Origin: Alcanivorax sp.
GTDB taxonomy: Bacteria > Pseudomonadota > Gammaproteobacteria > Pseudomonadales > Alcanivoracaceae
Assembly: GCA_022449455.1 (NCBI GenBank)
Contig: JAKUPL010000006.1
Location: 1-64,000 of the forward strand
Length of the DNA: 64,000 nt
Direction: 5' to 3'
The notes under the pieces were generated by a model. The model ran no database searches and was not told the origin of the DNA. It was given only the letters and a program-made list of their open reading frames with translations. Positions 2 through 11,943 of the stretch are shown in pieces. The translations under genes were made by a program, and so were the position numbers. Within the stretch, counting starts at the first letter, position 1. The number at the start of each line of letters is the position of its first letter.

Positions 2-409
2 GCGGTGGGCGCCATCACCCATTCCCACGGCGAGGCCGCCGCGCTCACCGGCGATGCCCGCCAGTGGCGCGGCCTGGGTCTGGACCGGGAGCGCTGGCTG
101 GCGCCGGCGCGGGCGGCGCGGCTGCGCGACGAGCTGCTGACCCCGGCGGAGCGCGACACCCTGACCGGCCTGTCCGAGGACGCCCTGGCGCGCCGCGTCA
201 CCCTCACCTTCTCGGTGAAGGAGAGCCTGTTTAAAGCGCTTTACCCACTCACCGGCCGGCGTTTCTATTTTCAGGACGCCGCCCTGGAGGACGACCGCAT
301 CCGGCTGCTCACCGATCTGTCCACGGACTGGCGCGCCGGACACGGCTTGCGGTTCGACGTGGAAGAAGACGCCTCCGGCCTGCTCAGCTGGATCCTGGTC
401 CCGGCCTGA
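2..409 (+). CDS. 4'-phosphopantetheinyl transferase, EntD-like (5' truncated)
   Basis: C-terminal part (about 135 residues) of an EntD/Sfp-superfamily enzyme, cut by the left edge. These enzymes move phosphopantetheine from CoA to a serine of acyl or peptidyl carrier proteins. The visible piece has GAITHS, matching the family's G-x-x-T-H-S segment, and FSVKESLFKALYP, the Mg- and CoA-binding (F/W)-S-x-K-E-S-x-x-K motif that defines the family. It runs in frame to the edge; a GTG at position 5 is internal to the motif and is not a start. It converges with the carboxylesterase gene, leaving 11 bp. The target carrier protein cannot be deduced, because upstream neighbours are outside the window. 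Confidence 0.88.
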   Translation, partial: AVGAITHSHGEAAALTGDARQWRGLGLDRERWLAPARAARLRDELLTPAERDTLTGLSEDALARRVTLTFSVKESLFKALYPLTGRRFYFQDAALEDDRIRLLTDLSTDWRAGHGLRFDVEEDASGLLSWILVPA

Positions 410-420
410 GCCCAACCGTT

Positions 421-2103
421 TCATGGCAGAGCGCAGCCCGGCGTGGCCGGCACCGGGTCGGCGTACAAACCGGCGTTGTAGAACCACTGCTGCCCGGCGG
501 CCCGCCGGCGGCAGACCACTTCCTCCACCAGCTCGAACATGCCCGGCTGCAGGTTGGTATCGGCCTCCGGCCGGTCGGCGAAACGCATGACGTTTTCGTC
601 GGTGCCGTAAGGCCGCCACTGCGCGTGGCCGGCGCTCTCCGGCGTGCCGCTGCGGGCGAAGGACACCCAATAGTCCATCATCGCCGCCGACAGCCGGCGA
701 GACGTCTCGCCTTCCGGCCGGGGCCAATTCGCCGAGAGCGTCGCGTCCGCGCCGACATGGCCGAACACGAACGGCACGTCACTGGCATGGAACGCGCAGA
801 GATCCAGCGCCTGGGCGGCCGGGTAACAGTAATCGAAGCGATACAGATAAGCGGGCACGCCTGCCGCCGTCTGCTTGCGAACCAGGCGCTCCGCGGCCCA
901 CCCATAGAGCGCGTCGCGGGCGGTGGCCATCAGGCTGTACTCCAGGTCCGAGGCGGGATAGACGGTGAGAAAGTCGTCCGCCAGATCCCCGTACAATTCA
1001 CCGATCCGGCTTTCGTAGGCGGCGCCATCCGCTGGCGCCGGGGCGATAAAAACTCGCTGGGAGCGCACCTCGCCCTCGTTGAAGCCCGCCAGCAGCGGCA
1101 CCCGCGCCTGCTCGCCGGCATCGAAGGTGGCCACCAGCTGGTCCGGCAGCGCCCAGCCGTCCACCGTGCCCTCCGGGCGGAAGCCGACCTGCTCGCCAAT
1201 CGCCACCAGTTGTTCCGCGTCCATGGCGCGCAGCGCTTCCGGCCCGGCCGCGCCGGCTTCGTCCATCACCACCGCGCCGAGCTGTTCCGCGGATGGCAGG
1301 CCATTCGCCGCGCTGCTCAGCATGGGCAGGGAGCGGGTATTGGCACTCTGGGCGATGGCTTTGTCGAACAGGTCACGCGCCAGCGGACTGGTCAGCAAAT
1401 AGGTGACGCTGAAGGCACCGGCGGATTCGCCCATGATCGTGACATTCGCGGGGTCACCGCCAAACTGTCCGATGTTGTCGCGCACCCACCGCAGGGCCTG
1501 GATCTGGTCAAGCAGACCATAATTGCCCGACACGCCCTGTTCGGACTCGGCACTCAACCCCGCCAGAGCCAGCCAGCCAAGGACGCCCAGGCGGTAGTTG
1601 AACGACACCACCACGGCGCCTTTGCGCGCCAACCGGGCGCCGTCGAAAATCGGCTGGCTGCTGCCGCCGATGCGCAAGGAACCACCATGCACCCATACCA
1701 TCACCGGCAGACGCCCGGCGTCATCCGGGGCCCAGACATTAAGCGTCAGACAGTCCTCGCTCATCGACGCCGGCGGGTCCCGATAGAGGCTGGTCTCGGC
1801 CACATCCGGCTGCACACAGCTCGGGCCGAAGGCCTCGGCGCGGCGCACGCCTTGCCAATGGGCCGCCGGGCGGGGCGCGCGCCAGCGCCCCTCACCCACC
1901 GGCGGTGCCGCGTAGGGGATGCCCTTGAAGACCGCGAGGCCGGCCTCGTGGACACCGCTCAGCCGCCCCTGCTCCACGCGGACTTCAGGCCGGGCCGTGG
2001 GCGGCGCGGAGTCGGAGGAATCGGAATCCAGGCAGGCGGTCAACGGGCCCATCAGCATCGCCAGCAACAGCGTTCTGGCCAGGGGCGGCGTTTTGAAAAC
2101 CAT
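421..2103 (-). CDS. carboxylesterase type B, lipoprotein
   Basis: 560-residue alpha/beta hydrolase of the carboxylesterase type B family, which hydrolyses carboxylic esters. A lipoprotein signal (hydrophobic LLLAMLMGPLTAC, lipobox LTAC) predicts a membrane-anchored extracytoplasmic enzyme. Family marks are the early FKGIPYAAPPVGEGRWRAP segment, the oxyanion region WVHGGS near residue 140 and the nucleophile elbow GESAGA with Ser227. The catalytic acid and histidine should lie in the C-terminal half, where GFNEGE and FHASDVPFVFGH fit. The ATG start is followed directly by the signal peptide. A terminator for the next gene upstream on this strand lies about 140 bp before the start, so it is probably transcribed alone. 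Substrate unknown. Confidence 0.9.
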   Translation of the reverse strand: MVFKTPPLARTLLLAMLMGPLTACLDSDSSDSAPPTARPEVRVEQGRLSGVHEAGLAVFKGIPYAAPPVGEGRWRAPRPAAHWQGVRRAEAFGPSCVQPDVAETSLYRDPPASMSEDCLTLNVWAPDDAGRLPVMVWVHGGSLRIGGSSQPIFDGARLARKGAVVVSFNYRLGVLGWLALAGLSAESEQGVSGNYGLLDQIQALRWVRDNIGQFGGDPANVTIMGESAGAFSVTYLLTSPLARDLFDKAIAQSANTRSLPMLSSAANGLPSAEQLGAVVMDEAGAAGPEALRAMDAEQLVAIGEQVGFRPEGTVDGWALPDQLVATFDAGEQARVPLLAGFNEGEVRSQRVFIAPAPADGAAYESRIGELYGDLADDFLTVYPASDLEYSLMATARDALYGWAAERLVRKQTAAGVPAYLYRFDYCYPAAQALDLCAFHASDVPFVFGHVGADATLSANWPRPEGETSRRLSAAMMDYWVSFARSGTPESAGHAQWRPYGTDENVMRFADRPEADTNLQPGMFELVEEVVCRRRAAGQQWFYNAGLYADPVPATPGCALP

Positions 2104-2243
2104 AAGTGCTCCGTGAATCTCGGGTTGTTTTATTTATGTGGTCGCCCGGGGTGGCCGACCATTTCATTCACTCACAAGAGAGATAATTAAATCAACAGCC
2201 CCTCCCTGTCCACAGCCACCCGGCGGTAAGCGGCTTTACCGCA

Positions 2244-2276
2244 CAAAAAAAAGCGGCCCGAAGGCCGCGTTTTGTG
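2244..2276 (-). terminator. Rho-independent terminator (bidirectional character)
   Basis: A perfect 6-bp GC stem (GCGGCC/GGCCGC, loop CGAA) is flanked by an A-run on the left and GTTTTG on the right, so the hairpin extends through A-T pairs. On the minus strand it ends in a U-run just after the stop of the lipoprotein gene at 2292. Confidence 0.85.
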
Positions 2277-2291
2277 TTCAGCAGCCGGCGG

Positions 2292-3029
2292 CTAGTCAGC
2301 GCAGAACAGATTGCCCTCGTCCCGGCGGCTGATCCGCACCAGATCCACCGCGCCGGTAAAACCGGCCCCGACCACTGCGCCCAGCGGGCTGCCGCTCAGC
2401 ACCGGTACGCCCGGCGCCACGTCGAACCCTTCCACGGTGTCGCAGTCCACCGCCAGCGTCACCCGTTCGCCGTCGGCGGCGAGCTGGATTTCCCGCCAGC
2501 CGTCGCCCGCGTCCAGAGCGGTGAGCAGCCGGCGGCTCTGCGACGGCAGCTCCACCAGCAGGCGGTCCCGGGCCAGGCTGATGCGCAGCGCGGTGCCGCC
2601 CTCGCCGGCCAGCGCCAGCACCGGTACCGCATCGGCCTGATCGGTGCGGGCGCGCAAGTGCAGGGTGAACCGCTCGCCGATCACGCTGTTGTTCAGCGAG
2701 CCGGTATCGCGGGTGACCAGGCGGTAGTCGTTGGCGAACGCCGCCACGCGCCCCACCTCTCCGCCGTCGGTCAGGGTCGGCGCCGCCGGCTGATCGTCGG
2801 CGTCCAGCCCGTACAGCGGATCACCGTAGGGCGAGTGGTCGTTGATGCAGGGGCCGTCGCAGCCGTCCTGCGTGTCCATTACCCAGAAGCCCAGCACGTA
2901 GCCGTCCACCGGCATGTATTCCACCGGGGTCGGGTCGTCCCGGTCCACGTAGCGGGTCTCGTCGTCGCCACCGCAGGCCGCCAGGGCGGCGGCGAGCAGC
3001 GTGATCGGCAAAGCGTTTCTCAGTTTCAT
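2292..3029 (-). CDS. LamG/concanavalin-fold-like lipoprotein, function unknown
   Basis: 245-residue predicted lipoprotein (signal ending ALAACGG). After the lipobox comes a short acidic linker, CGGDDETRYVDRDDPTP, much like the linker of the giant lipoprotein encoded just upstream (CGGDTDTVYRDQPVDVP). The rest reads like a LamG/laminin-type jelly roll: an early GFWVMDTQDG strand, paired cysteines in DGCDGPC, FTLHLRARTDQADAVPVLAL, and a terminal GFTGAVDLVRISRRDEGNLFC, where LamG domains typically end in a description of the fold boundary. I infer a carbohydrate or surface-ligand binding role. Only 11 bp separate it from the upstream gene, so the two are one operon, closed by the terminator at 2244-2276. 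No catalytic motif seen. Confidence 0.7.
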   Translation of the reverse strand: MKLRNALPITLLAAALAACGGDDETRYVDRDDPTPVEYMPVDGYVLGFWVMDTQDGCDGPCINDHSPYGDPLYGLDADDQPAAPTLTDGGEVGRVAAFANDYRLVTRDTGSLNNSVIGERFTLHLRARTDQADAVPVLALAGEGGTALRISLARDRLLVELPSQSRRLLTALDAGDGWREIQLAADGERVTLAVDCDTVEGFDVAPGVPVLSGSPLGAVVGAGFTGAVDLVRISRRDEGNLFCAD

Positions 3030-3040
3030 CGCGGCTCTCC

Positions 3041-6000
3041 TCAGCGGTCGGTGCGCGGGTGCAGGGTGACGTCGTCCACCACGGTGCCGTCCAGGGTGCG
3101 GGTCAGTACCCGCAGGGCCTCGCCCTGAATGTCCAGGGTGGTGTAGGTGTTGACGTTGTCGTCGAACAGCACGTCGGCGATCAGGGCGATGCCGCCGCCG
3201 TTGTTGTCGTAGTACTTGGCGGAGTCGGAGCCGGCGATCAGATAGGTGGCGCCGCCCGGCGCCGGCTTGCCGGCGGTCAGCGGCAGACTGCGCGAGTACA
3301 TGTGATCGTGGCCGGAGAGCACCAGGTCGATGCCGGTTTCATCCACCACCGGCGGAATATGGGCCTGGGAACGGCCGTTGCCGGAGGCGGCGTTGCCGTT
3401 GTACGGCGGGCGGTGCACCATCAGGATTTTCCAGGTGGCGTCGCTGGCGTTCATATCGCGGCGCAGCCAGTCCATCATCACCGGCCAGTCCGCCTCGCTT
3501 TGCAGCTCCGAGGTGATCACCGCGATGTGCGCCGGTCCGCGATCAAAGCTGTAGACCGCATCGTCGTAGGGCGCCGGCAGGCCGCTGTCGCTGCCGGGCA
3601 GCGGGATCAGATCGGCGAACTTCCGAGCGCCTTCGTTGTAGACCTCATGGTTGCCCTGGGCCGGCACGAACGGATGGGACGCCAGCATGTCGTCGCCTTC
3701 CAGCGCCTCGAAGAACAGCCGCACCAGCCGGTAGTCGGTCAGGTCCTCGGTGAAGTCGCCCACGTGCAGAATCAGATCGCCGTCCGGCAACTGGGCCTGC
3801 ATTTTCCGGTACAGCTCGGTGACCAGGCCACTGCCGTTGAACAGGTTGTCGTTGGACACCGTCTGGGTGTCGCCAAACAGATGGATACGCACGCGGTCGT
3901 CGCCGTCGTCGGTGGCGAACCGGAAGGTGTCACTCATGGCCCCGTCGGCGCCCACCCGATACTGGTAGTCGCTGCCGGCCCGCAAACCCTCCAGGGTGGC
4001 CCGGTGCACGCGCACCACGCCGGCTTCGCTGCCGTAGAAGAACGGCACGATGCGCGATTCGCCGGTGATCTCCCGATCCAGGCCGTCAACGCCGAAGCGC
4101 ACCCGCGAATCGGTCACGGTGCTGGCCGTGAACCAGGCCACGTTCATGGCGGTGGCATCCCGGCCGGGTGTGAGGAACACATAACGCGGCGTCTCGCCGA
4201 GCCGCTCGACCAGCGCCCGCACGTCGGTCATCAGGGAGGAGCCCTGGCCGTCGTAGGCGCGGAACAGCAGCGATTGGGTATCGGTGGCGGCCGGCAGGGT
4301 GACGTTCAGCCGGCCCTCCGCATCGGTGTCGCCGAGCACCGTGACATCGCTGATCTGATCGGTGCCGCTGTTGTAGCGGAAGGTTTCCAGGGTCACGCCG
4401 GGCGCCGGATTGCCGGCCTGATCCACCACCAGCATCCGCGTGCTTTCGCCTTCGATGCCCCAGTCGGTGAGCAGGCGATAGCGGCTGCCCACTTCCTTGC
4501 GCACCACCGGATGGTGGAAGGCGTCACCGTCCAGGGTGCCGTTCACCACCACCGACACGAAGGTGTTCTGAATGTAATCGCGTACCCTCAGGTTCAGGTA
4601 GGCGACCACGCCGGTGGCGTCGCTGAAGCCGGTGAATCGACCCTGCCAGCGGCCGCTGGTCTCGTTGACGCCGGTGGCGGTGAGGTCCCCGTCGTCCACG
4701 GTCATGGTGGCTTTGGTGCTGTCGTAGTCCAGCGTCAAGGACAGATCATTGAACGCGCCGGCGCCCACCGCGCGGATCGGAATGCTGAACGTGCCGCCCG
4801 GGTAGAGCTGAATGTTGTCGCTGTCGATATAGAGACGCGGCGCGCCGGTGACCACATTGAACAGGTAGTTGCCGGCGGTGACGTTGCCGTTGATGTCGAA
4901 CAGACGGTAGTCCACCCGGTGCCAGCCGTCGTCCAGGCCGGCGGCCTGATAGCGGATCCGGTCGCTGCCGTTGTTGGTGAGGTCGGCGGACACGTCACGG
5001 CCGTCCAGGGTCAGCTGGCTGGCCGCGAAGTCCACGCCGGACGCGTCATTCACCTGCAGGGCGATCAGCGGATCGGCGCTGTCCACGGTATCGCCGGACG
5101 CCGGCGTGGCGGTGACGCCCGGGCCGGCCAGGTCGGTGTCGTCGCTGTAGATGGCGGTGAAGTTGTCCAGCACCACCTGGGAATCAATACGCTCGGCGGT
5201 CTTCAGCACCAGGAAGCGGAACGGTTGGTAGAAGGTCAGCGGCTCGCGGTAGCCGCTGCCGATGCTGGCCTTCATGAAGTGCCAGCCGCGCTCCGGCAGT
5301 TGCTCGCCGTCGTTGTTGTAGTTGATGGTGACGGTCTTGCCGTCCGCGTCCTTGAGGCTGCCCCGCACCCACCAGACCTTGCCGGCCAGTTCATCGGGAA
5401 TGTACACGTTCACGCCCAGGTATTTCGGGTAACCCGGCAGTTCGGTGACACCGCCGGGGTCGGTGAGATAGGCACCGAAGGTGCCGGGCTGGTCCGGGTT
5501 GGCCTCCCAGCGCAGCGCCATGGAATGGGTGCCGTCGAACACCTGGTCCTGGACGCGCTCGATCTCCACCCGGCGATGGCGCGCGCCGGCGGCCTGGAAC
5601 ATGCTCACGTCGCCCTCGAAATCGGCGACGATCTCCGGCGCCACGCCGATATTGATGGTGAGCGCGGCGCTCTTGCCGGCGGCGCTGACGGTGACCGTGC
5701 ACTGGCGGCCCTGAACCGGGGCGGTGGTCACCTCGCCGGTGTTGGCGTTCACCTGGCACAGGGCGGCGTCGTCCACCTGATACGCCAGCGCCTCGGCGGA
5801 GAAAGTCACCGCCTCGCCCTGACTGATCAGTTGCGGTTGCAGCGCCACGGTAGCGCCACTGTCCACGGCGATGGCGGCGCTGGCGAAACGGATCTCGTCC
5901 AGTTCCGCGGTGACACGGACCCGGGCCACGCCTTTGCGGTCCCCCACTTTCACCACCACATAGCCTTCCTGATTACCGTCACCGGCCCGGAAGGCGCCGG

Positions 6001-7576
6001 TGCGCGCGTCGATCAGGCCCAGGCCGGCTTCGCTGATGCCGTATTCCGGCACCTCGCCGCCGCGCTCCCAGGACGCGGCGTCATAGCCCACGCCCTTGAA
6101 GCGCCGGTAGGTGGAACCGGTCATCAGGGTAATGGTGCGCGGGTAGACCGCCACCGCGTCGCTGGCCGCGCGGGCCCGCTCGGTGTTGAGCGCCAACCCC
6201 CACTTGGTGGCGGTGACCCGCTCGCCGCCGTCGGACGGGGTATTGAGCAGATAGGTGTAGCGTTCACCGGGCAGGCGCGCCGCCAGCGTGGTGGAGCCGC
6301 CGCCGTCCAGATTGATGGCGCGGTCGGCGCCGTAGGCGATCATCAACTGCCCCAGCTTGGTTTCGGTGATGCCGTCGGTGAGCGAGCCCACCGGCTTGTC
6401 CACCACCAGGAAGAAATAGCTGCCGTCGGCGCGCACGCCGAAGGCGGTGCGGCCGCTGATCGCGTTCTCGTTCTGGTTGTCGCCGAGCTGGCCGTTCTCC
6501 ACCAGCAGGCCCCGACCGAAGCCAGCGCCGAGGGCGCTTTTCACATTGGCCCAGTCCGGGTCGTCGGTTTCATAGCGGATGTCCACCCGGGCGCCGGCGT
6601 TCAGGGCGCCGTCGTCCACCAGCAGGGCATGGCCGGCGGGGATCACATAGCCGTCGCGGTCCTCGACGCGTGCCACCACGGTGCCGCTCAGCGGCGGCAA
6701 CTGGGCACTGATGCCGCCGTGCTCCAGCGTCACCACACTGATGCCGTTGGCTTCCGCCTTCACCAGCGCGGCGGAGCGACCGGTCAGGTCCACGGTGCCC
6801 CGGTAACTTTCCGCCAGGTACAGTTCCACCTCGCCGTTGCCCCGGCTGAAGCCGGTGTTCACCTGGGTGGCGTTGTCGAAGTAGTGCACGGTACCCAGCT
6901 CACCCAGAGCGCTGCCGTCCTGGTAGAGGTTGAGCGTGAAAGTGGGCACCTCCCGCAGGATATCGGCGCGGCCATCCTGGTAGACCACGATCAGGTCTTC
7001 GTTGCGGTCGGAGAAGCCGGTGTAGGTAACGCCATCCTTCTTGATCAGGCCGGTGTTCCAGCCTTGGGTCATGCTGTAGGGATCCGCGTTCACCGCCAGG
7101 ATCAGGTTGTCGCCGTTGTCGATGGCGTGGTTGGCCGAGGTGGTGGTGCGCTCGAAGGAAAACTGCCCCCGCGAGCGGGTCACCGGCACCAGGGACAGGC
7201 TGTCGCCCAGATTGAACTCGGCGCTGATGATGGCTTCGTCGCGGGTGTGGTTGAGCCGCCCCTCGGTGATCGTCAGATCCCGGTTCACGGCATAGCGGTG
7301 GAAGTCGCTGATCTCGGTGGGCACGGTCTCCCGGGCGGTGGTGCCGGACACCGTGGGCGGCGTGGCCGGCGCGAATTGCGCCTCGGCGTCCTCCGGTGGC
7401 GCGATCACGTTGGCGCTGAACGATTCCGCGCCGGACAGATCCTCCACATAGGGCACATCCACCGGCTGGTCGCGGTAGACGGTATCGGTATCACCGCCGC
7501 AGCCGCTCAACGCGGCGACGGCCAACAAGCACAACGGGGCCACGCCTGCGTGGCGCCACCTGGGACGACTGCTCAC
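3041..7576 (-). CDS. giant lipoprotein: phosphodiester glycosidase (NAGPA) plus purple-acid-phosphatase-like domain
   Basis: 1511 residues, GTG start with an upstream GGGAG Shine-Dalgarno. Lipobox LSGC near residue 26 anchors it outside the cytoplasm. An N-terminal phosphodiester glycosidase (NAGPA/DUF2233-type) domain spans roughly residues 130-460, with INLDGGGSTT near 420, the family's signature. The middle holds beta-sandwich modules: a bacterial Ig-like part, a jelly-roll CBM-like part (about 660-800) and a cohesin-like segment near 930-1020. The C-terminal third is a fibronectin-like purple-acid-phosphatase N-domain followed by a calcineurin-like metallophosphatase with GDTQ (about 1231), HVGDF, QGNHE, VHRPP and SGHDHMYSR (about 1422). 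All metal-ligand motifs look intact. Both catalytic parts act on phosphoester-type linkages, so a role in breaking down or remodelling phosphodiester-linked glycopolymers is plausible but inferred. Confidence 0.85.
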   Translation of the reverse strand: MSSRPRWRHAGVAPLCLLAVAALSGCGGDTDTVYRDQPVDVPYVEDLSGAESFSANVIAPPEDAEAQFAPATPPTVSGTTARETVPTEISDFHRYAVNRDLTITEGRLNHTRDEAIISAEFNLGDSLSLVPVTRSRGQFSFERTTTSANHAIDNGDNLILAVNADPYSMTQGWNTGLIKKDGVTYTGFSDRNEDLIVVYQDGRADILREVPTFTLNLYQDGSALGELGTVHYFDNATQVNTGFSRGNGEVELYLAESYRGTVDLTGRSAALVKAEANGISVVTLEHGGISAQLPPLSGTVVARVEDRDGYVIPAGHALLVDDGALNAGARVDIRYETDDPDWANVKSALGAGFGRGLLVENGQLGDNQNENAISGRTAFGVRADGSYFFLVVDKPVGSLTDGITETKLGQLMIAYGADRAINLDGGGSTTLAARLPGERYTYLLNTPSDGGERVTATKWGLALNTERARAASDAVAVYPRTITLMTGSTYRRFKGVGYDAASWERGGEVPEYGISEAGLGLIDARTGAFRAGDGNQEGYVVVKVGDRKGVARVRVTAELDEIRFASAAIAVDSGATVALQPQLISQGEAVTFSAEALAYQVDDAALCQVNANTGEVTTAPVQGRQCTVTVSAAGKSAALTINIGVAPEIVADFEGDVSMFQAAGARHRRVEIERVQDQVFDGTHSMALRWEANPDQPGTFGAYLTDPGGVTELPGYPKYLGVNVYIPDELAGKVWWVRGSLKDADGKTVTINYNNDGEQLPERGWHFMKASIGSGYREPLTFYQPFRFLVLKTAERIDSQVVLDNFTAIYSDDTDLAGPGVTATPASGDTVDSADPLIALQVNDASGVDFAASQLTLDGRDVSADLTNNGSDRIRYQAAGLDDGWHRVDYRLFDINGNVTAGNYLFNVVTGAPRLYIDSDNIQLYPGGTFSIPIRAVGAGAFNDLSLTLDYDSTKATMTVDDGDLTATGVNETSGRWQGRFTGFSDATGVVAYLNLRVRDYIQNTFVSVVVNGTLDGDAFHHPVVRKEVGSRYRLLTDWGIEGESTRMLVVDQAGNPAPGVTLETFRYNSGTDQISDVTVLGDTDAEGRLNVTLPAATDTQSLLFRAYDGQGSSLMTDVRALVERLGETPRYVFLTPGRDATAMNVAWFTASTVTDSRVRFGVDGLDREITGESRIVPFFYGSEAGVVRVHRATLEGLRAGSDYQYRVGADGAMSDTFRFATDDGDDRVRIHLFGDTQTVSNDNLFNGSGLVTELYRKMQAQLPDGDLILHVGDFTEDLTDYRLVRLFFEALEGDDMLASHPFVPAQGNHEVYNEGARKFADLIPLPGSDSGLPAPYDDAVYSFDRGPAHIAVITSELQSEADWPVMMDWLRRDMNASDATWKILMVHRPPYNGNAASGNGRSQAHIPPVVDETGIDLVLSGHDHMYSRSLPLTAGKPAPGGATYLIAGSDSAKYYDNNGGGIALIADVLFDDNVNTYTTLDIQGEALRVLTRTLDGTVVDDVTLHPRTDR

Positions 7577-7712
7577 CGTTTTTTCTCCCGGTCATTATCG
7601 GTAAAGGGACCAAACGAAGCCGGTACGGTAGTGGCCGCCTGTTGCAGAGTGGTGACCCGGGGATGACAGGGTTTATGTCAGTGATTTCGTCCCATGGGGC
7701 GGGATAAAGAAC

Positions 7713-7738
7713 AAAAAAAAGCGGCCCGGAGGCCGCTT
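7713..7738 (-). terminator. Rho-independent terminator after acyl-CoA dehydrogenase
   Basis: Stem GCGGCC/GGCCGC with loop CGGA, preceded on the plus strand by eight A residues, which becomes a U-run on the minus strand. It lies 25 bp beyond the stop of the dehydrogenase gene at 7763. Confidence 0.87.
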
Positions 7739-7762
7739 CTTCAGAGGGTCGGAGTTGTCGGT

Positions 7763-9538
7763 TCAGAACAGGTCCTGGTCCAGGCTCATCAGGGTGGCCG
7801 GGCCGGCCTTGATCTGTTCGGCCAGGGCGCCGGCACGGGGCAACAGACGCTCGAAGTAGAAACGCCCCACAGTGAGCTTGGCGCGGCCGAAGTCGTCGTC
7901 CCGTTGCGCGGCGGTGACCATCATGCGCGCCCACAGCCAGGCGTAGGTGACATAGCCGAACAGGTCCAGATACTCCACCGCGCTGGCGTTGACCATATCC
8001 GGGTCGTCACCGGCCTGGCGCAGCAGTTCGGCGGTGGTGCTTTCCAGCAAATCCACGGCGGCCACCAGCCGTTCTCGGATGCTGTCCAGCCCCTGCTCGT
8101 TGGCGTTGTCATCGATCCAGCCGCGCACGTCGGCCAGAAAGGCGTCCACGTACTTGCCGCCGTTGCGGGTCACCTTGCGGCCCGCCAGATCCAGCGCCTG
8201 AATGCCGTTGGTGCCTTCGTAGATTTGCGAGATGCGGCAATCGCGCACGAACTGTTCCATGCCCCACTCGCGCACGTAACCGTGGCCGCCGAACACCTGC
8301 TGGCCAATCACCGTGGTGTCGAAGCCGCGGTCGGTGAAAAACGCCTTGGCGATGGGGGTGAGCAGCGCCACCCGGTCCTGGGCCGCTTTCTTCTCCGCGT
8401 CGTTCTCGGAGAACTTGGCCTTGTCCAGTTCCATGCCCACGTAGGTGGACAGGGCGCGACCGCCTTCGTTGAGGGCACGCATGGTCAGCAGCATCCGGCG
8501 CACGTCGCCGTGCACGATGATCGGGTCGGCGTTGCCGCCTTCGTTCTGGACCCCGGTGGCGGCGCGGCCCTGCAGGCGCTCGCGGGCGTAATCGGCGGCG
8601 CTCTGATAGCTCACCTCGCCCAGGCCCAGGCCCTGGATGCCGATGGACAGACGCTCATAGTTCATCATGGTGAACATGGCGGCCAGCCCCTGGTTGGCTT
8701 CGCCGATGATCCAGCCCTTGGCGTCGTCGAAGTTCATCACGCAGGTGGCGGAACCCTTGATGCCCATCTTGTGCTCGATGGAACCGGCGGCCACGCCGTT
8801 GCGTTCCCCCGGGTTGCCGTCGGCGTCGGGCAGGAACTTGGGCACCAGGAACAGGGAAATACCCTTGGAACCGGCCGGCGCGTCGGGCAGCTTGGCGAGC
8901 ACCAGGTGGATGATGTTGTCCACCATGTCGTGTTCACCGCCGGTGATGAAGATCTTGGTGCCGGAAATATTGTAGGAGCCGTCGTCATTGGGCACGGCCT
9001 TGGTGCGCATGATGCCCAGGTCGGTGCCGCTGTGCGGTTCGGTGAGGCACATGGTGCCGCTCCACTCGCCGCTGTACAGCTTGGGCAGATAAGCCTGCTT
9101 GAGTTGGTCGCTGGCGTGGGCATCCAGGCACAGGGTGGCGCCGTTGGTCAGCGCCGGGTAAAGGGCGAACGAGGAGTTGGCGCTGTGCATCATTTCCTCG
9201 AACAGCACCGCCAGGGATTTGGGCATGCCCTGGCCGCCGAATTCCGGATTGCCGGAGAACGCGGTCCAGCCGTTTTCGGCGTAGGTTTTAAAGGCGTCCT
9301 TGAAACCTTTCGGCGTGGTGACCTGCCCGTTGTCGAAGTGGCAGCCTTCTTCGTCACCGTCGCGGTTCAGCGGGAAGAGTAGGTTCTCCACCATTTTGCC
9401 CGCTTCATCCAGAATGGCGTCGGACAGATCGCGGGTGACCTCGGCGGTGGCGGGCATGGACGCCCACAAACGGTCAGCCTGAAACACATCGTTCAAAATG
9501 AAACGCATGTCTTCCAACGGCGCTTTGTAGGTAGCCAT
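7763..9538 (-). CDS. acyl-CoA dehydrogenase, long (about 600 residue) type
   Basis: 591 residues, FAD-dependent acyl-CoA dehydrogenase of the long subfamily with a C-terminal extension, first step of beta-oxidation: acyl-CoA to trans-2-enoyl-CoA, electrons to ETF. Visible are the central CLTEPHSGTDLG FAD/substrate segment, TKIFITGGEHD, the helical part with GGHGYVREWGMEQ, and RISQIYEGTNGIQALDLAGRKV, where the Glu of YEGT is the position of the catalytic base in the family. A paralogue lies at 11998-13794 with the same segments in the same order. The chain-length preference cannot be read from sequence. Its own terminator follows; the ybaN gene upstream ends 40 bp before the start. Confidence 0.93.
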   Translation of the reverse strand: MATYKAPLEDMRFILNDVFQADRLWASMPATAEVTRDLSDAILDEAGKMVENLLFPLNRDGDEEGCHFDNGQVTTPKGFKDAFKTYAENGWTAFSGNPEFGGQGMPKSLAVLFEEMMHSANSSFALYPALTNGATLCLDAHASDQLKQAYLPKLYSGEWSGTMCLTEPHSGTDLGIMRTKAVPNDDGSYNISGTKIFITGGEHDMVDNIIHLVLAKLPDAPAGSKGISLFLVPKFLPDADGNPGERNGVAAGSIEHKMGIKGSATCVMNFDDAKGWIIGEANQGLAAMFTMMNYERLSIGIQGLGLGEVSYQSAADYARERLQGRAATGVQNEGGNADPIIVHGDVRRMLLTMRALNEGGRALSTYVGMELDKAKFSENDAEKKAAQDRVALLTPIAKAFFTDRGFDTTVIGQQVFGGHGYVREWGMEQFVRDCRISQIYEGTNGIQALDLAGRKVTRNGGKYVDAFLADVRGWIDDNANEQGLDSIRERLVAAVDLLESTTAELLRQAGDDPDMVNASAVEYLDLFGYVTYAWLWARMMVTAAQRDDDFGRAKLTVGRFYFERLLPRAGALAEQIKAGPATLMSLDQDLF

Positions 9539-9994: not shown

Positions 9995-10047
9995 GACCGC
10001 AGTATAAGATCGAGTAGGAGGGGGCGTCACCGCCCCCGTCCTCTCAC

Positions 10048-10080
10048 ACCACCGGGCATACGGTTCCGTACCACGGCGGT
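10048..10080 (-). ncRNA. group II intron domain V
   Basis: On the minus strand the 33 nt directly after the maturase stop fold into a hairpin: outer stem ACCGCCG/CGGTGGT, then TACGGAACCGTA as an upper helix and loop. This is the catalytic core hairpin of the intron. The following GC-rich hairpin (10009-10047) is domain VI, carrying the branch-point region. Confidence 0.82.
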
Positions 10081-11448
10081 TCAAGGTCGGCTCTGAAGCC
10101 TCACGACCGTCTCCACCAACGACACCAGGCCCAACCTCGCGAAGTACCGATTCGGCAAGGCCCCTTTCAGGTGCGAGGCACCGCTATTCCACCACGGCCC
10201 TCGACCATTGCTCGCGCTGTGACACGCTCGCGCTTCCGGTAACCCCAGCCTCATCAACGCTCGCGCCCTCGTCGCCGGTCGCTTCCACTGCCGCCACAGG
10301 ATCCCTCGCAGCTTGCGGCGCAACCAGCCGTCCACCGTCTCCAAGGCACGCTTGGACGCGGTGAGCTGGTAGTACGCCGCCCAGCCCCGCAGGATCGGGG
10401 CCAGTACATTGAGGGTGTGCGACAGGGAGCGACCTCGGCCTCGCCGGAGCACATCGCGCAGTGTCGACCGCAGCCGTTGCACGCTCTCCGGCGACACTCG
10501 CAGCCGCGTCCGACGGTGCCACGTCACGCTGTAGCCCAGGAAGCGACGGCGCCACGGGCGATCCACCGCACTTTTCCGGTGGTTCACCCGCAGCTTTAAA
10601 CGCTCCTCCAGGAACCGCGTGACGCTCGCCATCACCCGTTCTCCCGCTTGCTTACCGCGAACGTAGATATTGCAGTCGTCCGCATAACGGCAGAACCGGT
10701 GACCCCGGCGCTCCAGTTCCCGGTCCAGCTCCGTCAGCAGCAGGTTGGACAGTAACGGCGATAGAGGGCCGCCTTGCGGCGCCCCTTCCCCCCTCGGGCT
10801 GACCAGCCCCCCGTCCATCACCCCTGCTTCCAGGTAAGCTCTGACCAGCTTCAGAACACGCCGGTCGGCAACGTGGCGCGCCAACAGGCCCATCAGCACG
10901 TCGTGGTTCACTCGGTCGAAGAACGCTTCCAGGTCGATGTCCACCACCCACCGGTGGCCTTCCTCGATGTGACCCCGCATCGCGCTCACCGCCTGATGCG
11001 CACTGCGTCCTGGCCGGAACCCGTAACTCGACGCCGAGAACGTCGGCTCCAGCAGCGGGCTCAGTACCTGATGCAGTGCCTGTTGGATCAGGCGATCCTG
11101 GACCGTCGGGATGCCCAGCGACCGCTCGCCGCCTTGCGGCTTCGGGATGCGCACCCGGCGCACCGCGCTCGGTTGGTAGTAACCGGCGTGTATCCGTTCC
11201 CGGATCGCCGGCCAGTGTCGTTGCAGGTGGCCCTTCAGGTCACCCACGGTCATGGCGTCCACGCCCGCAGCTCCCTGGTTACGGACCACCCGTTGATACG
11301 CTCGCATCAGGTTGCCGCGCTCCAGCACGGCCTCCATCAGCGCGCTCGGCTCCGCGTTCGTCCGCGAGCGGGACGCCACCGTCGTCTCGGCACCGGTCGC
11401 ACGCACCCCGGGATACTGTCCCGCTCCTCGTTCGTCCGCTTGAACCAT
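10081..11448 (-). CDS. ltrA: group II intron reverse transcriptase/maturase (class C)
   Basis: 455 residues from ATG 11448, which has AGGAG eight nt upstream; an upstream in-frame TTG at 11469 overlaps that ribosome site and is less likely. Reverse transcriptase blocks are complete: RIPKPQGGERSLGIPTVQDR (RT1-2), SYGFRPGRSAHQA, DIDLEAFFDRVNHD, GAPQGGPLSPLLSN, and CRYADDCNIYV with the YADD active site near residue 246. The maturase/thumb region (HTLNVLAPILRGWAAYYQL) and a C-terminal domain resembling that of GsI-IIC RT follow. No HNH endonuclease is present, as expected for class C. It promotes splicing and reverse-splicing of the intron that carries it. All key residues present. Confidence 0.95.
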   Translation of the reverse strand: MVQADERGAGQYPGVRATGAETTVASRSRTNAEPSALMEAVLERGNLMRAYQRVVRNQGAAGVDAMTVGDLKGHLQRHWPAIRERIHAGYYQPSAVRRVRIPKPQGGERSLGIPTVQDRLIQQALHQVLSPLLEPTFSASSYGFRPGRSAHQAVSAMRGHIEEGHRWVVDIDLEAFFDRVNHDVLMGLLARHVADRRVLKLVRAYLEAGVMDGGLVSPRGEGAPQGGPLSPLLSNLLLTELDRELERRGHRFCRYADDCNIYVRGKQAGERVMASVTRFLEERLKLRVNHRKSAVDRPWRRRFLGYSVTWHRRTRLRVSPESVQRLRSTLRDVLRRGRGRSLSHTLNVLAPILRGWAAYYQLTASKRALETVDGWLRRKLRGILWRQWKRPATRARALMRLGLPEARACHSASNGRGPWWNSGASHLKGALPNRYFARLGLVSLVETVVRLQSRP

Positions 11449-11943
11449 CCGGTTCACTCCTGCCTTCAATAACCTTCGGTGAGTGCCCGCCGCCTACTAA
11501 CGGCAGACCTTGTTCGGCCCTTCAACTGCTGGTCAGGCAGCCTACTACGACCTCTGCTGACTTCTGCCGCCCCATCCCGACCCCTCACGGTGTCGGTAGC
11601 CCAGTGGCAGGACGGCAGACCTCCCAGGGTAAGACGCGCGACCTTCACACTTATGCCCGCCGCCTCTACGTCCACACCTTCCGTGCAAGTACCGGGCTTC
11701 AACGATATGCGCCGTCTTACCCGGTGTGGCCGCCTCGTAGGCGATTTCTGTTCGTCAGGCCAGTGCTTTGCCTTCGGCTTCCTTCAGATTCCACCTCGCG
11801 ATGGACACCCTTGCCGCTCAGCTAGTGGTTCCCCTTGCCGGGCCCACAGAGGACTTGCACCTCCAAGTCGTCCCGGGCGGCCACCACGGCGGGCCGGGAC
11901 AGCACCAATCTATGGCGCTTCGCGCCATGCCTGGCGCACGCAC

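What the first reader, a model, noticed from the sequence alone, without database searches (positions are those of the whole stretch)
2292..7576. Operon pairing a giant two-enzyme lipoprotein (phosphodiester glycosidase plus purple-acid-phosphatase-like) with a LamG-like lipoprotein
One 1511-residue chain carries an intact NAGPA-type signature (INLDGGGSTT) and, about 800 residues later, a complete calcineurin-like metallophosphatase set (GDTQ, GNHE, GHDHMYSR), with Ig/CBM/cohesin-like modules between. Its 11-bp neighbour is a lipoprotein whose post-lipobox linker (CGGDDETRYVDRDD) mirrors the giant's (CGGDTDTVYRDQ). The shared linker suggests one localisation signal and a joint role, perhaps cutting a phosphodiester-linked polymer and then removing the phosphate. 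I know of no described system of this kind.
Basis: partly seen in the sequence, partly recalled or inferred. Interest (0 to 1): 0.72.

Follow-up and report, generated by a model that had tools for sequence, protein, structure and literature searches.

The report
Surface two-enzyme lipoprotein with lectin-like partner
A marine bacterium has a two-gene unit for a very large lipid-anchored protein carrying two phosphate-cutting enzyme domains and a small sugar-binding-like partner; the big protein belongs to a widespread, barely studied family, and I found no description of the paired Gram-negative form.

Summary
On the minus strand, 3041-7576 encodes a 1511-residue lipoprotein with NAGPA (97 bits), Pur_ac_phosph_N and Metallophos domains, all above Pfam cut-offs. 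2292-3029 encodes a 245-residue lipoprotein 11 bp downstream with a predicted ConA/LamG-like jelly roll. Nearest named relatives are Alloalcanivorax. The pair is adjacent in 13 of 13 giant-bearing genomes among 57 searched, own included, and in Marinobacter daepoensis and two Solimonas, with differing flanks. "No described system" is only partly right: NAGPA-calcineurin fusion is in print (PMC11488536) and occurs in 60 of 76 fetched loci; the partner was found in 12 of 12 proteobacterial and 0 of 48 other fused loci. Best reading: a surface enzyme that removes a sugar from a sugar-1-phosphodiester and then the exposed phosphate, with the jelly-roll lipoprotein as glycan-binding partner. A conserved TGTCA-repeat promoter element hints at phosphate control but is off the canonical Pho-box spacing. 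It is not a true purple acid phosphatase: the tyrosine ligand is absent. Substrate and activity are untested. New variant of a known kind.

The parts
7715..7742 (-). terminator-like hairpin after the upstream acyl-CoA dehydrogenase gene; upstream boundary of the two-gene unit
   Evidence: 12 pairs, T tail; pattern match only, 7 such sites found in 1900-8000 against 2.8 expected
7652..7681 (-). conserved TGTCA-repeat promoter element: CTGACAT-N5-CTGTCAT-N4-GGGTCAC; Pho-box-like, but the best pair of units is 12 bp apart instead of 11
   Evidence: function inferred, not shown
3041..7576 (-). giant lipoprotein gene, 1511 aa, GTG start, lipobox LSGC with Cys26, acidic tether
   Evidence: lipobox by eye
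7028..7099 (-). N-terminal half of the NAGPA domain (residues 160-183, VNADPYSM...GLIKKDG), conserved to two Bacillota proteins
6545..6958 (-). insertion inside the NAGPA domain: 140 residues across columns 206-345 in 8 of 8 aligned proteobacterial proteins, 14 and 11 in two Bacillota proteins
6197..6679 (-). NAGPA phosphodiester glycosidase domain (residues 300-460) with INLDGGGSTT
5132..5629 (-). conserved beta-rich module (residues 650-815) between the enzymes, also in the Bacillota fusions; carbohydrate-binding role inferred
4853..5116 (-). Ig-like module (residues 821-908; CopC/Big_13-like, below cut-off)
4547..4819 (-). cohesin-like module (approx. residues 920-1010), seen below cut-off in the Marinobacter orthologue only
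4289..4438 (-). Big_1-like module (residues 1047-1096, below cut-off)
3911..4189 (-). Pur_ac_phosph_N (FN3-like) domain, residues 1130-1222
3296..3889 (-). calcineurin-like metallophosphoesterase domain, residues 1230-1427, five motifs (D1236, D1274, N1309-H1310-E1311, H1388, H1423/H1425)
2292..3029 (-). small lipoprotein gene, 245 aa, lipobox Cys19, starts 11 bp after the giant's stop
   Evidence: lipobox by eye
2322..2678 (-). ConA/LamG-like jelly-roll domain of the small lipoprotein (residues 118-236)
2253..2268 (-). terminator-like hairpin closing the two-gene unit
   Evidence: pattern match only

Best explanation
It is a two-gene transcription unit for two cell-envelope lipoproteins. The giant is the Gram-negative, lipid-anchored form of a widespread surface-enzyme family: NAGPA phosphodiester glycosidase, a chain of beta/Ig modules, then a calcineurin-like phosphoesterase. 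Most likely the NAGPA domain removes a sugar from a sugar-1-phosphodiester in an extracellular glycan and leaves a phosphomonoester. The calcineurin-like domain on the same chain then releases that phosphate. The small ConA-like lipoprotein, made from the same message, binds the glycan or positions the giant. The gain would be phosphate and sugar from phosphodiester-linked glycans, perhaps under phosphate limitation. Shown here: domains, catalytic motifs, lipoboxes (by eye), gene pairing and its conservation, terminator-like ends, conserved promoter element. Inferred: outer-membrane or surface location, catalytic activity, order of the two steps, substrate, the partner's role, and phosphate control.
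For: Both enzyme domains exceed Pfam cut-offs. All five calcineurin motifs are kept in the 10 aligned proteins, including two Bacillota proteins at 24-25% identity. The NAGPA signature aligns with PDB chains 3ohg and 6pky. The pair is adjacent in 13 of 13 giant-bearing genomes, own included (gaps 7-11 bp), and in three further proteobacteria (gap 10 in Marinobacter, gap 14 in Solimonas flava, 4-bp overlap in Solimonas variicoloris), although flanking genes differ; conserved pairing in changing surroundings supports a joint role. The partner profile matched nothing in the 48 non-proteobacterial fused loci. The partner's predicted fold is a ConA-like jelly roll, block pLDDT 81-96 over residues 121-230. 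Chemistry (described for human NAGPA, PMC12024695 abstract and passages): removing GlcNAc from GlcNAc-P-mannose exposes mannose-6-phosphate, a phosphomonoester. For the B. subtilis calcineurin-like surface protein ShfP, changing residues of its five motifs impairs function and it generates extracellular glycerol (PMC11488536, passages). Of 10 hand-picked flanking proteins of relatives, 5 have phosphate-related domains: PBP_like_2 (PstS-type) upstream in G005 and G008, PAP2 upstream in G014, Metallophos genes on both sides in Marinobacter. TGTCA-repeat element in the promoters.
Against: I saw no reported activity for any NAGPA-calcineurin fusion. The calcineurin-like domain could equally be a phosphodiesterase, so a sequential reaction is not required. 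The promoter element is off register: in this genome the 4 TGTCATN{5,6}TGTCA sites all have 11-bp spacing, whereas the giant's strongest pair has 12 bp; the 11-bp alternative scores only 12 of 14, and both Solimonas have neither. PBP_like_2 and PAP2 neighbours are clade-specific and may be coincidental. The AlphaFold2 model of residues 455-1511 was poor (mean pLDDT 58.9), so no structural support for the second catalytic domain was obtained. Surface exposure rests on lipoboxes read by eye.
Confidence: 0.42

Rival explanations
1. The two enzyme domains act on different bonds or substrates: the calcineurin-like domain is a phosphodiesterase on glycerol-phosphate-type polymers or lipid head groups (as proposed for ShfP and reported for PhoD), and NAGPA trims glycosyl-phosphate groups. 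There is no obligatory two-step relay.
For: ShfP, a surface calcineurin-like protein, generates extracellular glycerol, and PhoD, another calcineurin-like enzyme, is reported to degrade teichoic acids (PMC11488536 passages). 15 of 76 loci encode the phosphoesterase domain without NAGPA in the same frame (14 with no NAGPA found, three of these cut by a contig end; 1 with NAGPA in a neighbouring frame), so it can probably work alone.
Against: The full order NAGPA - beta module - phosphoesterase is kept in 60 of 76 loci across phyla, which favours coupling; the 76 are a capped, best-scoring set.
Confidence: 0.28
2. The pair edits or turns over the cell's own phosphoglycan (capsule or LPS) and has nothing to do with scavenging.
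For: Lipid-anchored envelope proteins; a CDP-glycerol-phosphotransferase-type gene (PF04464) exists in 3 of 13 genus genomes.
Against: PF04464 does not track the giant: of the three genomes holding it (G003, G004, G012) only G004 has the giant, and the own genome has none. Stealth_CR2 was found in 0 of 13, but the control rang nowhere, so that result is uninformative.
Confidence: 0.15
3. Mainly an adhesion or biofilm scaffold; the enzyme domains are secondary.
For: Several Ig-like modules (mostly below cut-off) and a lectin-like partner.
Against: The catalytic motifs are kept in 10 of 10 aligned proteins from two phyla.
Confidence: 0.08
4. The neighbouring genes are co-transcribed but functionally unrelated.
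For: The small gene diverges faster than the giant (37-96% against 63-99.5% identity to the window proteins).
Against: Adjacent in 16 of 16 proteobacterial genomes with changing flanks; in 57 genomes neither a full-length giant nor a strong match to the small protein was found without the other.
Confidence: 0.07

Closest known systems
ShfP (YvnB)-type extracellular calcineurin-like phosphoesterases, B. subtilis (Updegrove et al. 2024, PMC11488536)
   Same: Large secreted multi-Ig protein with a calcineurin-like domain described as having five conserved motifs; the paper lists NAGPA among the fused catalytic domains and laminin G among fused binding domains (passages).
   Different: ShfP itself is described with a lamin-tail domain and seven Ig domains, 1289 aa, with no NAGPA among its nine domains. 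The window protein has no lamin-tail hit, has a lipobox and has a separate jelly-roll partner gene. No sequence comparison with ShfP was made.
Bacillota and Micromonospora 'phosphodiester glycosidase family protein' fusions (e.g. Metabacillus WP_243551320.1)
   Same: Collinear from NAGPA to phosphoesterase, about 25% identity over roughly 1160 residues.
   Different: No lipobox in the six N-termini looked at by eye, no partner gene found, no 126-residue insertion in NAGPA in the two aligned; one carries cell-wall-binding repeats and one choline-binding repeats.
NAGPA/DUF2233 (human-type mannose-6-phosphate uncovering enzyme; PDB 3ohg, 6pky)
   Same: Pfam family above cut-off; DGGGS signature aligned.
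   Different: The solved relatives match over the NAGPA part only; the window's domain carries a large insertion and a second enzyme on the same chain.
Purple acid phosphatases (PDB 1kbp)
   Same: Same two-domain layout, Pur_ac_phosph_N plus Metallophos.
   Different: The tyrosine metal ligand (recalled) is not present: VGDFTED against VGDLSYAD.
NAGPA-TelC two-enzyme surface proteins of Bacillota (PMC12419801)
   Same: Two enzymes, one of them NAGPA, combined with surface-binding modules.
   Different: Second enzyme is a prok-TelC lipocone domain, and the proposed role is conflict (passage read).

Membership tests
NAGPA / DUF2233 (PF09992) | Score above curated cut-off | tested here: met
   97.4 bits against 25
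NAGPA / DUF2233 (PF09992) | DGGGS signature and N-terminal half (N-x-D ... G-x5-G) | tested here: met
   DGGGS invariant in 10 of 10 aligned proteins; N-terminal half aligned to Bacillota. That these define the family is recalled.
NAGPA / DUF2233 (PF09992) | Hydrolysis of a sugar-1-phosphodiester | not testable with these tools
   needs assay
Calcineurin-like phosphoesterases (PF00149) | Five metal-binding motifs | tested here: met
   D1236, D1274, N1309-H1310-E1311, H1388, H1423/H1425 conserved in 10 of 10 aligned proteins
Purple acid phosphatase | Pur_ac_phosph_N domain before the catalytic domain | tested here: met
   57.4 bits against 30
Purple acid phosphatase | Tyr metal ligand after the GD of motif II (recalled as the source of the purple colour) | tested here: not met
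   VGDFTED in the window, VGDLSYAD in PDB 1kbp; no Tyr three residues after that Asp in any of 10 aligned proteins
ShfP-like surface phosphoesterases | Secreted calcineurin-like domain with Ig-type modules | tested here: met
   (Ig-type modules below cut-off); signal peptide by eye
ShfP-like surface phosphoesterases | Lamin-tail domain as in ShfP itself | tested here: not met
   no lamin-tail family listed for the protein at E<=1
ShfP-like surface phosphoesterases | Groups with the ShfP catalytic domain in a tree | not tested
   ShfP sequence not obtained
Laminin G / ConA-like (small protein) | Pfam cut-off | tested here: not met
   12.4 bits against 27.6; weak hits in 8 of 13 members
Laminin G / ConA-like (small protein) | Jelly-roll fold (predicted) | tested here: met
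   AlphaFold2 model; 521 PDB matches at E<=1e-3; among the 50 listed: GH43 arabinanase domain 4 (5hon), thrombospondin-1 N-terminus (1z78), PL7 alginate lyases, and mostly lectin-like modules of clostridial toxin complexes
PhoB (Pho-box) regulon | CTGTCAT repeats 11 bp apart in the promoter | tested here: inconclusive
   12 of 14 at 11-bp spacing, 13 of 14 at 12-bp spacing in the own promoter

The most novel reading that the evidence does not exclude
A phosphate-starvation-induced, two-lipoprotein surface machine of marine Gram-negative bacteria that binds phosphodiester-linked glycans (for example teichoic-acid-like or GlcNAc-1-phosphate polymers from other organisms), strips the sugar with one active site and hands the exposed phosphate to a second site on the same chain, as an undescribed route to phosphorus.
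Probability: 0.25. Interest if true: 0.62.

Novelty: new variant of a known kind. Interest (0 to 1): 0.38.

Why it matters
The searches made here showed no demonstrated activity for any NAGPA-calcineurin fusion (openly licensed papers only), although such fusions were found here in many Bacillota, one Micromonospora and some Gammaproteobacteria. The Alloalcanivorax form has a short operon, a single NAGPA match in the own genome and a separate binding-type partner, so it could be a clean genetic system for asking what this family does and whether surface glycans serve as a phosphorus source.

Tried and rejected
AlphaFold2 on residues 455-1511 (12-sequence alignment) gave mean pLDDT 58.9 and pTM 0.37. 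Its Foldseek hits were long multi-domain proteins with TM-scores up to about 0.2, so I used neither for domain calls.

PhoB control: a 17-bp inverted repeat TGACA-N7-TGTCA was first considered. Four such places exist in the own genome, one of them this promoter, and I saw no common theme among the neighbours of the other three by eye. The alternative, a Pho box, was calibrated with TGTCATN{5,6}TGTCA: 4 places in the own genome, all N5. By eye three of them have a ppk-like, a pstS-like and a phoB-like ORF beside them; the pstS-like one scores 151 bits for TIGR02136, below its cut-off of 206.6. In 13 genus genomes there are 69 places against 7 for the reversed control; 15 of the 69 have N6 spacing, and 4 of those 15 are the giant's promoters in G005-G008. 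The giant's promoter does not fit the commoner N5 spacing. Left as a lead.

Own-glycan synthesis: Stealth_CR2 in 0 of 13 with no positive control, so uninformative; PF04464 in 3 of 13, not tracking the giant.

The idea that the small protein's weak matches in the genus are phosphoesterases was dropped: L042-L047 are longer ORFs not resembling phosphoesterases by eye (not family-tested). Marinobacter does carry a LamG+Metallophos lipoprotein-like gene next door.

Plasmid records: 27 hold partial matches, none covering 80% of the giant. Class-wide sampling: 369 genomes, only the own genome matched either protein at the thresholds used (E 1e-30 for the giant, 1e-8 for the small), so the pair is rare and patchy.

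Full report
What is there. The window begins at base 1 of contig C56 of a 4.22-Mb genome. The closest named relatives by this protein are Alloalcanivorax profundimaris (99%) and A. marinus (98%). The minus-strand ORF 3041-7576 (GTG, 1511 aa) and the ORF 2292-3029 (ATG, 245 aa) are separated by 11 bp. Terminator-like hairpins lie just upstream (7742-7715) and just downstream (2268-2253), among 7 such sites in 1900-8000 against 2.8 expected, so a two-gene unit is likely. Both proteins begin with a signal peptide and lipobox (Cys26; Cys19), read by eye.

Domains of the giant. Pfam gives NAGPA at 300-460 (97.4 bits), Pur_ac_phosph_N at 1130-1222 (57.4) and Metallophos at 1230-1427 (57.5), all above cut-off; Big_1 and CopC are below cut-off. 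PDB sequence matches are purple acid phosphatases for the C-terminal part (E 4e-9) and the DUF2233 protein 3ohg for the NAGPA part (E 6e-9). The own genome has one NAGPA match. In an alignment of 10 proteins (8 proteobacterial, 2 Bacillota) all five phosphoesterase motifs and DGGGS are kept. In the proteobacterial proteins the NAGPA domain carries an insertion: 140 residues across columns 206-345, against 14 and 11 in the two Bacillota proteins. The tyrosine that ligates iron in purple acid phosphatases (recalled) is missing: VGDFTED against VGDLSYAD in 1kbp. The catalytic domain is therefore calcineurin-like, not a true purple acid phosphatase. A structure prediction of residues 455-1511 failed to give a usable model, so the second catalytic domain rests on sequence evidence.

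The small protein. Pfam LamG is below cut-off for the window protein (12.4 vs 27.6 bits) and weak in 8 of 13 members. The 13-sequence AlphaFold2 model (mean pLDDT 70.7) has a confident beta sandwich from about residue 120 on. Foldseek finds 521 PDB matches at E<=1e-3. Most of the 50 rows shown are lectin-like modules of clostridial toxin complexes; the list also holds the GH43 arabinanase domain 4 (5hon), the thrombospondin-1 N-terminus and PL7 alginate lyases, all at 7-17% identity. This is a fold class, not a function. A profile search agrees weakly (thrombospondin-1, E 0.0017).

Conservation of the pair. Of 57 genomes searched (own included), 17 match the giant at E<=0.001: 13 hold it at full length, and the other four have phosphoesterase-domain matches only. 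The small protein is found in the same 13 at E 6e-43 or better; seven weaker rows (E 1.6e-5 to 5.5e-4) are in other ORFs. In all 13 the two genes are adjacent, 7-11 bp apart. Ten of 13 genus genomes have the pair. A scan of genome contigs kept the best 80 of 207 confirmed stretches, in 76 loci: by record title 12 proteobacterial and 64 others. Nine of the 12 appear to be organisms already counted (judged from contig lengths); the new ones are Marinobacter daepoensis, Solimonas variicoloris and S. flava, all with the partner next door, in S. variicoloris overlapping by 4 bp. With profiles built here, 60 of 76 loci encode NAGPA and phosphoesterase in one frame; the small protein is found in 12 of the 12 proteobacterial loci and in 0 of the other 48 fused loci. 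Of the 16 not fused, 14 have the phosphoesterase with no NAGPA found (three of them cut by a contig end), one has the two in separate frames, and one has NAGPA only. In an even sample of 369 genomes of the class only the own genome matched at the thresholds used. The patchy spread, the 62-69% identity to Marinobacter and Solimonas proteins (other families; taxonomy recalled) and the changing neighbours suggest horizontal spread of a two-gene cassette (inference). The neighbours seen are acyl-CoA dehydrogenase in the window genome and, by eye, in L051 and L052; PAP2/VTT in G014; LuxR-type and PBP_like_2 genes in G005; and flagellar-like genes in Solimonas (by eye).

The tether. CGGDx(1-2)Tx[YF]xD occurs twice in the own genome, once in each gene of the pair. 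In 13 genus genomes there are 8 places, in 5 genomes, all in the pair, with one place for the reversed control; the pair in the other five pair-bearing genus genomes has variants that this pattern misses. The profile of the small protein also matches the N-terminus of 4 of 12 proteobacterial giants. A looser version (CGGDNDRTVFVDRPVEVPVD) occurs in L048, an ORF with only a sub-cut-off Cytochrom_C hit. The resemblance is real, but it is not proof of a private localisation signal.

Promoter. Between the upstream terminator and the giant lies CTGACATAAACCCTGTCATCCCCGGGTCAC. The ten genus orthologues keep [CT]TG[AT]CATAA-N3-[CA]TGTCAY. Ten upstream regions (7 of the 13, plus Marinobacter and two Solimonas) were scored against YTGTCAY repeats in 150 bp with Markov-resampled controls (one strand, 2000 each). 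At 12-bp spacing the score is 13 of 14 (G000, 0 of 2000), 13 (G010, 0), 14 (G005, 0) and 13 (G008, P 0.0015), but only 10-11 in G014, G025, G028 and Marinobacter and 8 in both Solimonas. At the canonical 11-bp spacing it is 12 of 14 in G000, G010, G005, G028 and Marinobacter (P 0.002-0.0125), 11 in G008, G014 and G025 (P 0.05-0.08), and 9 in both Solimonas. The clades are related and two spacings were tried, so these P values are not independent evidence. In the own genome the 4 perfect-repeat sites all have 11-bp spacing, as have 54 of 69 in the genus. Phosphate control is a reasonable lead, not a result.

Literature. Updegrove et al. 2024 (PMC11488536; outline, abstract and 12 passages read) describe a vast radiation of bacterial surface calcineurin-like phosphoesterases, list fusions to laminin G, Ig, S-layer and other modules, and name NAGPA as a fused catalytic domain. 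For ShfP they report that residues of the five motifs are needed for function and that it generates extracellular glycerol; they suggest lipoteichoic acid as the likely substrate. The eLife 2025 paper (PMC12419801; two passages) describes NAGPA combined with prok-TelC. Eight paper searches were run; 'phosphodiester glycosidase' with 'metallophosphoesterase' returned none. In their listings I saw no paper on the Gram-negative pair, within a library of openly licensed papers only.

Mechanism and verdict. Human NAGPA removes GlcNAc from GlcNAc-P-mannose and exposes mannose-6-phosphate (PMC12024695, abstract and passages), a phosphomonoester such as a phosphomonoesterase would use. The simplest joint reading of the fusion is 'uncover, then dephosphorylate' on an extracellular glycan, with the jelly-roll lipoprotein as binding partner. 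The rival that the calcineurin-like domain is itself a diesterase, as reported for PhoD, is also plausible. The finding is a real and well-delimited variant of a known but functionally open family.

Noticed in passing
window 10009-11805 (-): A group II intron: Rfam D1-D4 matches at 11633-11805 (145 bits) and 11517-11599 (64 bits), a maturase/reverse-transcriptase ORF at 10081-11469 (RVT_1 135 bits, GIIM 70 bits), and a 3'-end match at 10009-10081 just below its gathering score (34 vs 40). The ORF was not seen at this place in the gene lists of L051 and L052.
   Followed up: partly
L108:12410-14260 and L108:6081-6854: In Marinobacter daepoensis the pair is flanked by a Metallophos gene on one side and, convergent on the other, a lipoprotein-like gene that fuses Metallophos with LamG (51 bits): two functions of the pair in one chain.
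   Followed up: partly
L058:5174-6469 and L059:4170-5447: A PBP_like_2 (PstS-type) gene lies upstream of the giant in two Alloalcanivorax relatives; in L058 two LuxR-type autoinducer-binding regulators lie there as well.
   Followed up: partly
window 6545-6958 (-): About 126 extra residues inside the NAGPA domain in the 8 aligned proteobacterial proteins compared with two Bacillota proteins; role unknown.
   Followed up: no
L109 and L110, 3673-6752 upstream, and from 16910 (L109) or 17841 (L110) downstream: In both Solimonas species genes that look by eye like flagellar hook-associated genes lie just upstream of the pair, and a flagellin-like gene lies several kb downstream.
   Followed up: no
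window 2-409 (+) and 421-2103 (-): A 4'-phosphopantetheinyl transferase gene (cut by the contig start) and a COesterase-family gene (lipobox-like by eye) lie next to the pair. The transferase is also beside the pair in L051, where the esterase was not seen in the gene list.
   Followed up: partly
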